A stretch of DNA of 47,623 nucleotides from Longimicrobium sp. (GCF_035474595.1 NZ_DATIND010000119.1:1-47623), one strand, 5' to 3'. Shown: positions 5,127 to 14,848, numbered from the stretch's first letter. Translations and numbers: made by a program. Notes: a model not told the origin generated them from the sequence alone.

Positions 5127-5276
5127 CTACCAGCACATCGCCTGGCCGGTATCGCAGCAGTAGCTGGGCTCGGCGGTGGGCTTCGTGACCGTGATGGACC
5201 ACTGCGGGTCTGCCGGGTCGGAGGCCTGCAGCGAAACCACGTTCAGCGTGTCGAGGTCCAGCGTCAGCTTCTGCAT
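5127..5276 (-). CDS. Small RiPP-like precursor peptide 1
   Basis: 49-residue peptide. ATG at 5276 is preceded by GGGAG at a spacing of about seven. The leader MQKLTLDLDTLNVVSLQAS matches the leaders of the two larger peptides at 9534 and 12876 (pattern K-L-x-L-x-L-[DN]-x-L-x-V-x-S). The C-terminus ends in SYCCDTGQAMCW, with three Cys plus Ser/Thr, unlike the repeats of its paralogues. Such leaders occur on class I lanthipeptide-type (pinensin-like) precursors, as far as I recall the family. No dehydratase, cyclase, protease or exporter is adjacent. The upstream region carries a 9-bp hairpin (5310-5330). The next plus-strand promoter at 5414 is divergent. It is unlikely to be a chance ORF, given the leader match and ribosome-binding site. 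Its modification is inference. Confidence 0.72.
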   Translation of the reverse strand: MQKLTLDLDTLNVVSLQASDPADPQWSITVTKPTAEPSYCCDTGQAMCW

Positions 5277-9343: not shown

Positions 9344-9417
9344 GGGTGCGGGCCGCTCGGCGCCTCGTCCGCGAGATCATGGACGGTCCGGATCCGCTGC
9401 AGCCGATCGTCAGGCCG
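9344..9417. repeat. ~80-bp GC-rich island repeat, copy A
   Basis: Most diverged of five same-orientation copies between 9.3 and 14.9 kb. The conserved core reads GGGTGCGGG-CC, then GATCATGGACGG, then CTGCAGCCGATCGTCAGGC. It lies downstream of the peptide gene terminator at 9424. Confidence 0.65.
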
Positions 9418-9423
9418 CGCGAA

Positions 9424-9458
9424 GAAAACGGAGAACTGCGGCCAGCTGCAGTTCTCCG
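9424..9458 (-). terminator. Rho-independent terminator of RiPP-like gene 2
   Basis: On the minus strand CGGAGAACTGC and GCAGTTCTCCG form an 11-bp perfect stem with an 8-nt loop, followed by TTTTCTTC. It lies about 75 nt beyond the stop of the peptide gene. An almost identical structure follows its paralogue at 12764-12797. Confidence 0.8.
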
Positions 9459-9533
9459 TATTCCGCGTCTCCGCGTGAACCGGCAGTGGTTACGGCCGCC
9501 CCGTCCGCCCGTGGTCCGGGCGGGACGCCTGCG

Positions 9534-9821
9534 TCACGCCTTGCAGCCGTCGCCGCACGTCTGCACGCCGCCGCACTGCGTGGCACCGCCGCCCGAGACC
9601 TGGCAGCCGCCGCCGCACGTCTGCACGCCGCCGCACTGCGTGGCACCGCCGCCCGAAACCTGGCAGCCGCCGCCGCACGTATGGACGCCGCCGCACTGCG
9701 TGTTCGCCCCGCCGGAAACCTTGTCCTGCGCGCCGTTTACGGTGCCTTCCCAGTTCTCCAGCCACGAGGTATCGAAGGAGTCCACCTCCAGCGCGTCGAG
9801 CTCCAGCCTCAGCTTGTTCAT
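9534..9821 (-). CDS. Repeat-bearing Cys-rich RiPP-like precursor 2
   Basis: 95 residues. ATG 9821 follows GGAGG at a spacing of about seven. The leader MNKLRLELDALEVDSFDTS is shared with peptides 1 and 3. Next comes a link with ENWEGTVNG, then three 20-residue units of the type TQCGGVQTCGGGCQVSGGGA. The last unit is truncated, ending CGDGCKA. Nine Cys fall as three CX5CX3C sets, each beside Thr or Ser. The first unit has His (GGVHTC) where later ones have Gln. The peptide is glycine-rich with no signal peptide or membrane segment. It is probably a substrate for thioether, heterocycle or metal-binding modification, with the leader as recognition element. No maturation gene is adjacent, so enzymes must act in trans. 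A metal-binding or disulfide-rich protein is the alternative. Confidence 0.8.
   Translation of the reverse strand: MNKLRLELDALEVDSFDTSWLENWEGTVNGAQDKVSGGANTQCGGVHTCGGGCQVSGGGATQCGGVQTCGGGCQVSGGGATQCGGVQTCGDGCKA
9541..9720 (-). repeat. 60-bp tandem repeat (three units) inside peptide gene 2
   Basis: Units 9541-9600, 9601-9660 and 9661-9720 align with no gaps. The first two differ at only a few bases; the third, encoding the leader-proximal unit, is more diverged. One unit encodes 20 residues, so unit number can change without shifting frame. Confidence 0.9.
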
Positions 9822-9860
9822 GATCTTCCTCCGGATGATGGAATGGAAAGTGGCACCGCC
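9822..9860 (-). promoter_or_regulatory. Conserved 5' region of peptide gene 2
   Basis: Reading the minus strand, GTGCCACTTTCC and CATCATCC precede the GGAGG and start codon. Almost the same block precedes peptide gene 3 (13161-13200). The shared sequence suggests a common leader RNA or promoter-proximal element, or a recent duplication. No clear -35/-10 pair is seen. Confidence 0.5.
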
Positions 9861-10011
9861 GATCGCCAGAACCGGCGGGCGAACAATGCTCGGCCCCGAT
9901 TCGAAAAGCAAGAAGATCCTGTGGGAAGGGCGAGAGGCCGGGAAGAACAGGACCGCGGAGACAGGAGAGAGCTTTCTCCACGCCTCCGCGTCCACGCGGT
10001 AGGGGTAAGGA

Positions 10012-10608
10012 CTACGCCCTGCGCACCGGGTAACGCAGGTGTGTAACGCCGACGCCCGGGATCACCGCCGGGTTGCCGAGGACGGCCGGCGTGCCGGCGA
10101 GGTGGTCGAAGAGCCGCACTCCGGAGCCGAGAAGCACCGCCGCGATGTCGACGTGGATCTCGTCGAGAAGGCCGGCATTCAGGCACTGCTGGATGGTGTC
10201 GGCGCCGTGGACCGCGACGGACTTCCCGGCGGCGGCGGCCCTGGCCTGGCTCACGGCGCTTTCGATGCCGTCGGTCACGAAGTGGACCGTCGAGCCGGGG
10301 CGCGGCCATCCGTCGGGGACGTGGTGGGTGAGGACGAATGCGGGTCCCCAGGCGTGATTTCCGCCCCAGCCGTGGGCGACCTCGAACGTGCGCCGGCCGG
10401 TGAGCACGGCACCGAGCTCGGACCAGAGACCGCGAAGGTGCCCGGCGCTCGGCCCGGACACCCTGAACGTCATGGCGTCCGACCCTCCGGTCTGGAATTC
10501 CACGTCCCCCGAGTCGAAGTACCAGTCGAATACTTCGGCCACGCCGTCGTCGGGGTCGGCGACGTAGCCGTCGAGCGACATGGACATGATTGCGATAACC
10601 TTCGACAT
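10012..10608 (-). CDS. Dihydrofolate reductase-family protein (RibD C-terminal-like)
   Basis: 198 residues, start ATG 10608. The opening SKVIAIMSMSLDGYVADPDDG is the typical first strand and loop of the RibD_C/DHFR-like family. AVLTGRRTFEVAHGWGGNH follows, then PAFVLTHHVPDGWPR and a TVHFVTDGIESAVSQARAAA helix. VHGADTIQQCLNAGLLDEIHVDIA and LLGSGVRLFD complete the NADPH-binding half. Members are small soluble reductases, often of unknown substrate, and can act on pterin- or flavin-like compounds. It stands alone between peptide genes 2 and 3, downstream of an unrelated non-coding gap. There is no sign that it belongs to peptide maturation, though its position invites a test. Confidence 0.85.
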   Translation of the reverse strand: MSKVIAIMSMSLDGYVADPDDGVAEVFDWYFDSGDVEFQTGGSDAMTFRVSGPSAGHLRGLWSELGAVLTGRRTFEVAHGWGGNHAWGPAFVLTHHVPDGWPRPGSTVHFVTDGIESAVSQARAAAAGKSVAVHGADTIQQCLNAGLLDEIHVDIAAVLLGSGVRLFDHLAGTPAVLGNPAVIPGVGVTHLRYPVRRA

Positions 10609-10887
10609 CGCGATGTTTCCTTGCGAGGGGTGGAAACTGCGTTCGGGGGATGATCGCCGCGCCGTCCTCCCGGATCATCCGCCGAACGATGGGATTCAGG
10701 GGCAGATGAGATGCGTCATCAGCCACGGAACTCCGTCGAACTGGGTGCGTGCCTGACGGGGGGCTTCAGGGAATGGCGGGCTACGCCACGAATGAGAGTA
10801 TGTCCGGCCCGCCATCCCCTGCAAGCAGGGTCAGGCCACGCGACGGACTGGCACCCACGGCCTCGTCACACTTGGTGCAGGACGCTC

Positions 10888-10930
10888 TTGACCTCCGCCC
10901 GTCCGTGCCGTACTCTGCATCGCAAAGTAC
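10888..10930 (+). promoter_or_regulatory. Promoter with overlapping PadR-like palindromic operator
   Basis: TTGACC at 10888, 17 bp, TACTCT at 10911. The -10 lies inside an inverted repeat GTACTCTGC-ATC-GCAAAGTAC (10910-10930) with one mismatched pair. Operators of this GTACTnTG type are, to my knowledge, bound by PadR-family repressors; no padR gene is in the window. Nothing else is recognisable in 10609-10987. Confidence 0.5.
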
Positions 10931-10987
10931 TTGTCGTTCTATCATCCGCACGCGGCAAGCGCGTCTGATCGAGCATCGGAGGTAGGC

Positions 10988-11476
10988 ATGAAGAGGTGGT
11001 GGCGACGCATCCGTGCGGCAATCGGGATGGGCCTCGCCTGGGCAGCGGCAGGGTTTGCTGCGGGCATCCTGCTGGCGCGGGTGCCCGGTTTCTACTCCGA
11101 CCTCCCGTTCGCCCTCCTGTTTGCTCCGCTCGGCTTTGTTTCCGGCATCCTGTTCTCCGGAATCCTCGTGGTGATCGGGGGCCGCCGCGGGTTCGATCGC
11201 ATGTCGATTCCGCGCTTCGCGGGGCTGGGTGCCGTGAGTGGCCTTCTGCTGTCCGGGATCTTCGTCGCCGGCGCGGCCCTTCGAGGAGACGCCGTGTGGC
11301 GAGAGTTCCTGGTGTTCGGTCCCGCGCTCGCCACGGCGAGCGCGGTCTGCGCTGCTGGTTCGCTGGCCCTGGCCAGACGGGCTGAAAGGCGGGAACTCCC
11401 CGGCCCTGGTGGGAATCCGGCCCAGGCCGAGCTTACCGGCGACGAAAAGCGGCAGCTGCTCGGACGCGGCGACTGA
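10988..11476 (+). CDS. Small four-helix membrane protein, unknown function
   Basis: 162 residues from ATG 10988, preceded by GGAGG. The N-terminus MKRWWRRIRAAIGMG is basic (positive-inside), followed by a hydrophobic helix at about 12-32. Further membrane segments lie near 40-65, 78-100 and 112-130, and the tail is soluble (ELTGDEKRQLLGRGD). Glycine-rich helices without charged residues give no transporter or enzyme motif. I do not recognise the family. It is probably controlled by the palindrome at 10910-10930, which implies ligand- or stress-responsive expression if a PadR-type repressor binds there. Confidence 0.7.
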   Translation: MKRWWRRIRAAIGMGLAWAAAGFAAGILLARVPGFYSDLPFALLFAPLGFVSGILFSGILVVIGGRRGFDRMSIPRFAGLGAVSGLLLSGIFVAGAALRGDAVWREFLVFGPALATASAVCAAGSLALARRAERRELPGPGGNPAQAELTGDEKRQLLGRGD

Positions 11477-11745
11477 CGTGTCCGCGTGGCTGCAGCCCGC
11501 CGCTTCGGAGGACGTTGCTTATTTGGATGTGGATGATGGCAGGGAAGTCTGACGACCCCTGGCGCTCACCCGCGAGCCGGCGCATCGAATCATCGCGGTC
11601 GACGCGCAGGCCGTGATGGCGTCGTCGGGTGCAGCGCCGAGCCAGCCAGCCGTACCGCAACGGGCGGTATTCGGAGCGGGCGGTCGCCACGCCGGGCAGC
11701 GAAAGCTCCAGCCTCGGGTGCGGTCTCCCGATTCGCCGCCGCTGC

Positions 11746-12489
11746 TCAGACCGCTCGAACTTCGGCGAGCCGCTTGACCGCGTACTCGTCGTCCCAGCAG
11801 ACGGCGGCCTCCCATGCGGCCGACGCCTGCGCGGCGATGTCGTGCGCCTCGTCGTCAAAACCGGCGGCATTGTGGGGCAGCACCAGGTCGAGGTCGGGGA
11901 CGTCGACGTGCGCCTCGTCCCAGTCGATCAGCGCGACCCGACCTGCGGTCATGCGGATGTTGCGCGGGTTGGGGTCGCCGTGGACGACGCAGGTCCGACG
12001 TCCGGCGAGCCGCGCCCACGCTGCCCGGCATCGAGCAACGCCCTCGGGCGGCATCGCGCCGAGATCGATCTTCGTCCCGGTCTCGGCGTGCAGAAGGTCG
12101 GCCGACGATCGCCACCCCGGGCGCTGCGGCCAGCCCTGCGTCAACCGGTGGAGCTGGCGGAGCGTGTCCGCCACGCGACGCCAGTCGGCCTCCGTCTCGG
12201 GCGGTCCGCCCTCCACCCAGGTCATCACCACCAGGCCGTCGGCGAACAGCCGGCCGTCCGTAGTCGGGATCGGCACCGGCACGGTCAGACCTTCATGGGC
12301 GAGGTGTTGGAGGAGTTGGGTCTCCCACGCGAGATCAGCGTCGCTCCTGGCACCGAGACGACCGACCGCAAGGTGCCCGTAAACGCGCACGCTCCACACA
12401 TCGTTGGCGACTCCGCCGGCGAGCGGTTCGATGCGAGCGGCGTCGCCACCCCACTGCTCGAGTGCCTCCCATCTCACTGGCCACCTCAT
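11746..12489 (-). CDS. Aminoglycoside phosphotransferase-family kinase
   Basis: 247 residues from ATG 12489 (MRWPVRWEALEQWGG). It has an APH/choline-kinase fold: GGVANDVWSVRV nucleotide loop near residue 25-36, hinge-type MTWVEGGPP, and the Brenner motif CVVHGDPNPRNIRM with the catalytic Asp. LIDWDEAHVDVPDLDLV follows, where IDWD supplies the metal-binding Asp. The family phosphorylates small molecules; many chromosomal members are not antibiotic-resistance enzymes, and the substrate cannot be read here. It is flanked upstream by copies of the ~80-bp island repeat and is not in an operon. Resistance activity should not be assumed. Confidence 0.85.
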   Translation of the reverse strand: MRWPVRWEALEQWGGDAARIEPLAGGVANDVWSVRVYGHLAVGRLGARSDADLAWETQLLQHLAHEGLTVPVPIPTTDGRLFADGLVVMTWVEGGPPETEADWRRVADTLRQLHRLTQGWPQRPGWRSSADLLHAETGTKIDLGAMPPEGVARCRAAWARLAGRRTCVVHGDPNPRNIRMTAGRVALIDWDEAHVDVPDLDLVLPHNAAGFDDEAHDIAAQASAAWEAAVCWDDEYAVKRLAEVRAV

Positions 12490-12521
12490 GGTTCCCAATC
12501 CGTGCGACCTAACAACACCAA

Positions 12522-12609
12522 GGGTCAGGGGTGCGGGGCCGGCGCGCAAGCCTGTGGTCGGCCAGAGCACGGGCAGCCCCGCATCCGCTGCAGCCGATTG
12601 TCAGGCCGC
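12522..12609. repeat. ~80-bp GC-rich island repeat, copy B
   Basis: GGGTCAGGGGTGCGGGGCC opens the copy and CTGCAGCCGATTGTCAGGC closes it. GGGGTGCGGGGCC and the later GCCCCGCATCC are mutually complementary, so a long-loop hairpin is possible. The 386-nt gap 12490-12875 holds only copies B and C and the terminator at 12764. Confidence 0.8.
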
Positions 12610-12676
12610 AGGTGCGCCGGAGGGTCAAGCGGCATGCCGAAGACGTGCGTGTTCACCTCCAGCTCAAGAAATGATT

Positions 12677-12753
12677 GCAGGGGTGCGGGGCCGCTCAGCC
12701 CTTGTTGGCCAGATCATCGACGGCTCCGCAGCCCTGCAGCCGATGGTCAAGCC
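12677..12753. repeat. ~80-bp GC-rich island repeat, copy C
   Basis: Contains GCAGGGGTGCGGGGCCGC, GATCATCGACGG and CTGCAGCCGATGGTCAAGC. It sits directly beyond the terminator of peptide gene 3, just as copy A does for peptide gene 2. Confidence 0.75.
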
Positions 12754-12763
12754 GTATGTGAAG

Positions 12764-12797
12764 AAAACGGAGAACTGCGGCCAGGCGCAGTTCTCCG
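12764..12797 (-). terminator. Rho-independent terminator of RiPP-like gene 3
   Basis: On the minus strand the same 11-bp stem CGGAGAACTGC/GCAGTTCTCCG is followed by TTTTCTTC. A second GC hairpin (CGCCCCGCCC/GGGCGGGGCG, around 12838-12870) lies between it and the stop codon. Confidence 0.8.
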
Positions 12798-12875
12798 TTC
12801 TTCGGCATCTCCGCGTAAAACCTGGCGGTGGTTGCTACCGCCCCGCCCAACCGTGTGCCGGGCGGGGCGCCTGCG

Positions 12876-13160
12876 TCACGCGTTGCAGCCCTCGCCGCAC
12901 GTCTGGATGCCGCCGCACTTCGTGGCACCGCCGGCCGTGGGCTGGCAGCCCTCACCGCACGTCTGGATGCCGCCGCACTTCGTGGCACCGCCGGCCGTGG
13001 GCTGGCAGCCTTCGCCGCACGTGTGGATGCCGCCGCACTTCGTGTCTCCGCCCTCCGTGACGTTGCCCTGCCCGTGCACGGTGCCTTCCCAGTTGCTCAG
13101 CCGGGAGGTCTGGAAGGACTCCACCTCGAGCGCGTTCAGGTCCAGGTTCAGCTTCTTCAC
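12876..13160 (-). CDS. Repeat-bearing Cys-rich RiPP-like precursor 3
   Basis: 94 residues. The GTG start at 13160 is set by GGAGA upstream and by alignment with peptide 2. The leader is MKKLNLDLNALEVESFQTS, then SNWEGTVHG, then three 20-residue units of type TKCGGIQTCGEGCQPTAGGA, the last ending CGEGCNA. Nine Cys occur in CX5CX3C sets. Nine Thr follow the NWEGTVHG segment, equal to the Cys number and compatible with one thioether per Cys. As in peptide 2, the first unit has His (GGIHTC) and the others Gln. It is a clear paralogue of peptide 2, with shared 5' block, terminator and flanking repeat, so the whole cassette was duplicated. Modification and export are inferred; no enzyme gene is beside it. 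Confidence 0.8.
   Translation of the reverse strand: MKKLNLDLNALEVESFQTSRLSNWEGTVHGQGNVTEGGDTKCGGIHTCGEGCQPTAGGATKCGGIQTCGEGCQPTAGGATKCGGIQTCGEGCNA
12885..13060 (-). repeat. 60-bp tandem repeat (three units) inside peptide gene 3
   Basis: Blocks 12901-12960 and 12961-13020 are almost identical; the third, to about 13060, diverges after the Cys codons. Near-identity of the two C-terminal units points to recent duplication or gene conversion. Confidence 0.9.
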
Positions 13161-14060: not shown

Positions 14061-14119
14061 GAGGAAGTACAGCCGGTGGGAAGATGATGTGGATCGAGAC
14101 GGATCCGCGGATCGGATCA

Positions 14120-14200
14120 GGGGCAGGGGTGCGGGGCCGGCGCGCAAGCCTGTCGACCGCGAAAACATGGACGGCCCCGCATTCCTGCAGCCGATTGATA
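14120..14200. repeat. ~80-bp GC-rich island repeat, copy D
   Basis: GGGGTGCGGGGCCGGCGCGC is shared word for word with copy B, then ATGGACGGCCCCGCATTCC and CTGCAGCCGATTG. It lies between the two putative exported-protein genes. Confidence 0.8.
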
Positions 14201-14758: not shown

Positions 14759-14848
14759 AGGGTCAGGGGTGCGAGGCCGGCGCGCAGCCTATCGTCCGCG
14801 AAATCATGGACGGCCCCGCATCCCCTGCAGCCGATTGTCAAGCTGCGG
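14759..14848. repeat. ~80-bp GC-rich island repeat, copy E
   Basis: GGGTCAGGGGTGCGAGGCC, then AAATCATGGACGGCCCCGCA and CTGCAGCCGATTGTCAAGC. Its end overlaps the last codons and the stop of the HEPN-like gene, so the repeat appears to supply that stop. Confidence 0.8.

What the first reader, a model, noticed from the sequence alone, without database searches (positions are those of the whole stretch)
9534..13160. Family of orphan RiPP-like precursors with triplicate CX5CX3C cores
Seen: two ~95-residue peptides (9534-9821 and 12876-13160) share a leader and NWEGTV segment, and each carries three 20-residue units of type T-x-C-G-G-x-x-T-C-G-x-G-C. In peptide 3 the nine Cys are matched by nine Thr after the leader. 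Known: modular precursors with conserved leaders are typical of RiPPs, and repeated cores give several products per precursor. Inference: a thioether, heterocycle or metal-chelating product made by enzymes encoded elsewhere. No dehydratase, YcaO, radical SAM or exporter lies in the window.
Basis: partly seen in the sequence, partly recalled or inferred. Interest (0 to 1): 0.86.

Follow-up and report, generated by a model that had tools for sequence, protein, structure and literature searches.

The report
Huge scattered family of lanthipeptide precursors
The two repeat-cored peptides are real genes and belong to a set of at least 166 small precursor genes scattered through this bacterial genome; all share one leader and are probably turned into thioether-ringed peptides by one or two central enzyme sets, about twice the largest such set I found reported.

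Summary
Two minus-strand peptides (95 and 94 aa, 67% identical) share a leader and carry three 20-residue T-x-C-G-G-x-x-T-C-G-x-G-C units each, with nine Cys and nine Ser/Thr. Orthologues with the same units exist in three other genomes. No modification enzyme was found in the window. The leader is not confined to it: a profile found at least 150 copies in this genome, and closer reading of about 600 kb raised this to at least 166, on more than 50 contigs. Cores are hypervariable and Cys-rich; 205 of 207 have at least as many Ser/Thr as Cys. In the family (21 genomes) the leader occurs in exactly the 10 genomes that have a LanB dehydratase; LanM, YcaO and HopA1 do not track it. Leader peptides sit in a conserved operon: split LanB, LanC, precursors, ABC transporter. 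The window pair are therefore most likely orphan class I (pinensin-like) lanthipeptide precursors modified in trans. Two points are unusual: the scale (the largest set I found reported is 79 SyncAs, class II), and an acidobacterial MAG that carries the same core unit about 17 times beside class V-like enzymes. The product itself is not shown.

The parts
9534..9821 (-). precursor gene P0001, 95 aa, three CX5CX3C units
   Evidence: orthologue next to the same RibD-like gene in G286
9732..9821 (-). leader of P0001 (MNKLRLELDALEVDSFDTSWLENWEGTVNG)
   Evidence: leader profile A1, 52.1 bits, E 5.9e-13
9539..9721 (-). core repeat array of P0001, 3.0 copies of 60 nt at 91%
9428..9459 (-). terminator-like hairpin downstream of P0001, also found downstream of P0002 and of the G286 and G243 orthologues
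12876..13160 (-). precursor gene P0002, 94 aa, three CX5CX3C units, GTG start
13071..13160 (-). leader of P0002 (first 30 residues)
   Evidence: leader profile A1, 48.7 bits, E 6.4e-12
12885..13059 (-). core repeat array of P0002, 2.9 copies of 60 nt at 93%
12767..12798 (-). hairpin downstream of P0002, paralogous to 9428-9459
   Evidence: coordinates read
5127..5276 (-). third, short and degenerate leader-like ORF (49 aa, 3 Cys); doubtful member
   Evidence: leader HMM 18.5 bits, translation; no NCBIfam match

Best explanation
The two peptides are orphan precursors of class I, pinensin-like lanthipeptides. Each appears to be its own small transcription unit with a conserved hairpin terminator. 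Proposed mechanism: the shared leader (MKKLxLxLDxLxVESFxT...GTVxG) is bound by a split LanB encoded elsewhere (a TbtB-like tRNA-dependent glutamylation protein plus a separate elimination protein). That enzyme dehydrates Ser/Thr in the core, LanC closes thioether rings with the Cys, a protease removes the leader, and the operon's ABC transporter (or a general one) exports the product. In the window pair each 20-residue unit has three Ser/Thr and three Cys, so up to three (methyl)lanthionine rings per unit and nine per peptide. They belong to a library of at least 166 precursors with one leader and hypervariable cores, served by one or two enzyme sets, as ProcM/SyncM does in class II. Shown by sequence: leader family, dispersal, co-occurrence with LanB, operon context, enzyme domains and predicted fold, core grammar, purifying selection. 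Inferred: modification in trans, ring formation, processing, export. Bioactivity is unknown.
For: (1) At least 150 leader matches in this genome, all that were scored (weakest E 2.2e-8), plus 16 more found in the fetched regions; the first 150 lie on 54 contigs. A less fragmented relative, G032, has 82, only one within 20 kb of its split LanB. (2) In 21 genomes of the family the leader is in 10 and PF04738 LanB is in the same 10 (Fisher p 2.8e-6). LanM, HopA1 and YcaO do not match that pattern. (3) Operon LanB-N, LanB-C, LanC, leader peptides, ABC transporter in this genome (C23) and in G224 and G032, and in another taxonomic family (G169) with the precursor before LanC; domains. (4) LanB-N: relative of TbtB 6EC7 (E 1.4e-43); model pLDDT 75.8, Foldseek E 3e-34, TM 0.81 to TbtB, then GodF, MibB, MadB and NisB. 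LanC has the WC and CHG motifs of the zinc site. (5) 205 of 207 nonredundant cores have Ser/Thr >= Cys (permuted mean 187, maximum 196); Ser/Thr enriched at -1 and -5 from Cys (z 27 and 19). (6) 24 cross-species core pairs: Cys 98% conserved, Thr 82%, pooled core dN/dS 0.49. (7) 54 of 71 leaders match NF038180 leader_pinensin at E <= 0.1.
Against: The window peptides themselves score 13.1 and 15.1 bits against NF038180, below its cut-off of 24. The co-occurrence genomes are related, so Fisher's p overstates independence. The LanB gene on C4 is truncated at a contig end. The genome also has LanM and LanKC, and one leader peptide lies within 5 kb of a LanM on C25. No dedicated leader protease was identified. 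dN/dS for the window family alone is ambiguous: 0.38-0.53 for four of its ten pairs and 0.7-1.4 for the other six. Ser/Thr directly next to Cys is not expected to close a ring with it, so the ring pattern is unknown. Expression and product mass are untested.
Confidence: 0.8

Rival explanations
1. Orphan precursors modified mainly by the genome's class II LanM or class III LanKC enzymes rather than the split LanB.
For: LanM on C25 and C136 and LanKC on C87 are present. Leader peptides lie within about 5 kb of LanM on C25 and 7 kb of LanKC on C87.
Against: LanM is absent from four leader-bearing genomes (G399, G379, G251, G396; G379 has at least 150 precursors) and present in one without the leader (G361). 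The conserved operon holding leader peptides is the LanB one.
Confidence: 0.07
2. Azol(in)e or sactipeptide-type RiPPs (YcaO or radical SAM), as in heterocycloanthracins.
For: TIGR03601 heterocycloanthracin matches at 30 and 27 bits (cut-off 35), probably driven by CGG-rich cores. Two YcaO genes are on C136.
Against: YcaO is in 4 of 21 genomes and absent from 7 of the 10 leader genomes. The C136 YcaOs sit with TfuA and a LanM, not with this leader. Radical SAM enzymes were not surveyed.
Confidence: 0.05
3. Unmodified secreted Cys-rich peptides: disulfide-bonded or metal-binding, with the leader acting only as an export signal.
For: Cys-rich, with an ABC transporter in the operon.
Against: Ser/Thr >= Cys in 205 of 207 cores and a positive partial correlation of Cys with Ser/Thr but with no other residue class tested in the full set are not expected for disulfide peptides. 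Exact co-occurrence with LanB.
Confidence: 0.05
4. Decaying duplicates: most orphan precursors are non-functional leftovers of a small active set.
For: Degenerate, short leader ORFs exist (5127-5276 and others). Two genomes with LanB have only 1 or 5 leaders (the latter is 61% complete).
Against: Pooled core dN/dS 0.49 over 1184 codons in 24 cross-species pairs, with Cys 98% conserved. All five window-family members keep intact cores. Pairs were chosen with a matrix that rewards Cys, so the Cys figure leans upward.
Confidence: 0.03

Closest known systems
Pinensins and NCBIfam NF038180 leader_pinensin (class I, split LanB, Bacteroidota)
   Same: Leader type (54 of 71 leaders match at E <= 0.1); split LanB; a LanC closest to LanM cyclase domains, an oddity reported for LanCs tied to precursor family I 17, which includes pinensin (PMC7268733).
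   Different: Precursors are scattered, at least 166 in one genome, instead of lying beside the enzymes. The window peptides fall below the NF038180 cut-off.
Prochlorosins / SyncA with ProcM / SyncM (class II)
   Same: One shared leader, variable cores, precursors distant from the enzyme and few enzymes (PMC10783134, PMC9872173, PMC7268733).
   Different: Different enzyme class (split LanB plus LanC, not LanM), a different leader (not Nif11), and about twice the reported 79 substrates of SyncM in a single strain (PMC9872173).
TbtB/TbtC thiopeptide-type split dehydratases
   Same: LanB-N fold (TM 0.81 to TbtB); separate elimination-domain protein matching TIGR03891.
   Different: A LanC is in the operon and the cores are Cys-rich with Ser/Thr at or above Cys. 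The TbtD pyridine synthase model matches far below its cut-off (58.6 vs 325 bits).
Class V (LxmK, HopA1-type, LanC) lanthipeptides
   Same: An acidobacterial MAG locus with an LxmK-like kinase and a HopA1-LanC fusion carries the same core unit about 17 times.
   Different: HopA1 is absent from the window's genome, and the window's APH gene is not LxmK.

Membership tests
Class I lanthipeptide | LanB dehydratase and LanC cyclase encoded in the genome | tested here: met
   PF04738 and PF14028 (split) plus PF05147 on C23; LanB fold; WC and CHG zinc-site motifs in LanC
Class I lanthipeptide | Leader recognised by that LanB | tested here: inconclusive
   Same 10 of 21 genomes and leader peptides inside the LanB operon; binding itself not testable
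Class I lanthipeptide | Core with Ser/Thr and Cys able to form rings | tested here: met
   9 Ser/Thr and 9 Cys in each window peptide; family-wide Ser/Thr >= Cys in 205 of 207
Class I lanthipeptide | (Methyl)lanthionine in the product | not testable with these tools
   needs mass spectrometry
Pinensin family (NF038180) | Score over the curated cut-off of 24 bits | tested here: not met
   13.1 and 15.1 bits; a sister peptide on C97 reaches 27.2. So called pinensin-like, not filed as a member
Prochlorosin / ProcM system | LanM as the synthetase | tested here: not met
   LanM does not track the leader
Heterocycloanthracin (TIGR03601) | Score over the cut-off of 35 bits | tested here: not met
   30 and 27.4 bits
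Heterocycloanthracin (TIGR03601) | YcaO cyclodehydratase partner | tested here: not met
   YcaO absent from 7 of the 10 leader genomes
Class V lanthipeptide | LxmK-type kinase and HopA1-type protein | tested here: not met
   HopA1 absent from own genome; window APH unlike LxmK

The most novel reading that the evidence does not exclude
This lineage runs a diversity-generating class I lanthipeptide system in which one or two split-LanB/LanC sets modify more than 165 scattered substrates, and cores are exchangeable modules: the same T-x-C-G-G-x-x-T-C-G-x-G-C core moved between unrelated leader and enzyme systems (class I here, class V-like in an acidobacterial MAG), so the product and not the pathway is what selection keeps.
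Probability: 0.4. Interest if true: 0.8.

Novelty: new variant of a known kind. Interest (0 to 1): 0.64.

Why it matters
If true, it is the largest precursor library known to me behind a single RiPP enzyme system, and the first I could find for class I LanB/LanC enzymes. No paper in the library searched mentions pinensin together with Longimicrobi*; that library lacks most subscription journals. It would offer a substrate-tolerant LanB/LanC pair for peptide engineering, a natural set of several hundred cores for learning ring-forming rules, and a direct test of why bacteria keep hundreds of lanthipeptide variants. Cluster-based mining that looks only near the enzyme misses almost all of these genes.

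Tried and rejected
Heterocycle origin (YcaO) and class V origin (HopA1 and the window APH gene): not supported. APH as a partner of the precursors: not conserved next to the orthologues. A common upstream motif or a family-wide terminator: k-mer enrichment mostly picked up neighbouring precursor genes, and among the copies scanned here the hairpin was found only at the window pair. Rfam match near the genes: none. Plasmid relatives: none. Literature on orphan class I libraries: nothing found.

Full report
Observation. They are 67% identical, share the leader and NWEGTV, and carry three 60-nt repeats each. Each unit reads [ST]-x4-T-x-C-G-G-x-x-T-C-G-x-G-C, so three Ser/Thr and three Cys per unit.

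Orthologues. Three other genomes of the family carry the same peptide: G379 (four units), G243 and G286. In all of them the Cys and the unit Ser/Thr pattern is kept while linker residues change. In G286 the gene still sits beside the same RibD-like gene (92% identical). The 3' flank is conserved too, with a hairpin terminator in all copies for which it was inside the aligned stretch, so each precursor looks like a separate cassette.

A genome-wide library. The leader is what these genes share with the rest of the set. P0002 alone matched 81 places in its own genome (a few of them not leaders). A profile of 71 leaders (A1) matched all 150 candidates it was allowed to score, the weakest at E 2.2e-8, and my own scan of about 600 kb of fetched sequence gave 16 more, some of them weak. 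The count is therefore at least 166, on more than 50 contigs. The window is the whole of contig C119 of a 6.57-Mb draft genome. Cores outside the window are unlike those inside it: most are short, Cys-rich and hypervariable.

Enzymes. The genome has two LanB-N genes (C4 and C23, both cut by contig ends), and on C23 a separate elimination protein and a LanC. On C23 the order is LanB-N, LanB-C, LanC, six leader peptides, ABC transporter, all on one strand. The same order is seen in G224 and G032, and in G169 from another family with the precursor before LanC. LanB-N is a TbtB-type glutamylation enzyme by sequence and by predicted fold (the model is of the G379 homologue). LanC carries the WC and CHG motifs of the zinc site and is closest to LanM cyclase domains (tested on the G399 homologue), an oddity reported for LanCs tied to the pinensin precursor family (PMC7268733).

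Co-occurrence. Of 21 genomes in the family, 10 have the leader and the same 10 have LanB. LanM, YcaO and HopA1 are distributed differently. Genomes are related, so the Fisher value is a description rather than a strict test; within the genus three genomes lack both. Copy number ranges from 1 (G251, where the single precursor is beside LanB) to at least 150. In G032, with 60 contigs, 82 precursors were found and one lies within 20 kb of the split LanB.

Chemical signature. In 207 nonredundant cores, Ser/Thr equals or exceeds Cys in 205, against 187 on average and 196 at most when Ser/Thr counts are permuted among cores of similar length. Cys number correlates with Ser/Thr number after correction for length (partial r 0.50) and with no other residue class tested in the full set. 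Ser/Thr is enriched one and five positions before Cys. This fits a lanthionine system and is not needed by a disulfide system. Selection: 24 reciprocal cross-species pairs keep 98% of core Cys and 82% of Thr, with pooled core dN/dS 0.49; for the window family alone the ratio is ambiguous.

Same core, other machinery. The only relative reported from the 84,980-species collection (a narrow pattern scan) is a contig binned as Thermoanaerobaculum (Acidobacteriota), with a frame of about 17 units such as TAGGHTHCGGVHTCGQGC, followed by an LxmK-like kinase (69.8 bits to NF038156, cut-off 315) and a HopA1-LanC fusion. The match is specific to the window's core family: scores 216 to 299, other cores at most 126, shuffled cores at most 76. 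No pinensin-like leader is apparent in its reading frame. Whether the core moved or arose twice is open. The bin label was not checked; the enzymes and the repeat are on the same contig.

What is known. NCBIfam already names the leader type (NF038180). The window peptides miss its cut-off, so they are called pinensin-like and not filed as members. The many-substrates, few-enzymes design is known for class II prochlorosins, with 79 substrates in one strain the largest number I found (PMC9872173). The scale and the class I enzymes are what is new here. The host is probably a Longimicrobium-like gemmatimonadote; this is my inference and was not tested.

Limits. Modification, ring pattern, leader removal, export, expression and activity are inferred. 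The precursor count is a lower bound from a draft assembly with 3.95% estimated contamination.

Noticed in passing
L131 9434-14207 (acidobacterial MAG contig JAJKHS010000045.1): About 17 tandem copies of the same CGG[IV]HTCG core in one frame, followed by an LxmK-like kinase and a HopA1-LanC fusion: a class V-like lanthipeptide locus sharing this core.
   Followed up: partly
G000:C136:300-7756 (L043); also G224:C7: LanM beside a TfuA-like gene and two YcaO genes in this genome (LanM and two YcaOs also in G224): possible hybrid lanthipeptide and thioamide or azoline cluster.
   Followed up: no
window 5127-5276 (-): Short leader-like ORF, MQKLTLDLDTLNVVSLQASDPADPQWSITVTKPTAEPSYCCDTGQAMCW, with a diverged leader lacking SF and GTV.
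   Followed up: partly
window near 9365-9420, 12523-12608, 14116-14195, 14761-14839: A dispersed intergenic repeat (GCGGGGCC...CTGCAGCCGAT) recurs in the window and in a related genome.
   Followed up: no
L119 (G251:C30:19241) and L114 (G379:C98:18824, 19184): Precursors beside a diverged split LanB: at C30:19241 and C98:18824 the core is a long [ST]-x-C ladder (CSGCTSCSGC...), the C98:19184 one is less regular. The nearby LanC-like genes read CCG instead of CHG, the motif linked to loose specificity in ProcM-type enzymes (PMC12328550).
   Followed up: no
G000:C87 (L044 5457-8408): Class III LanKC in the same genome (613 bits), with a leader peptide about 7 kb away.
   Followed up: no
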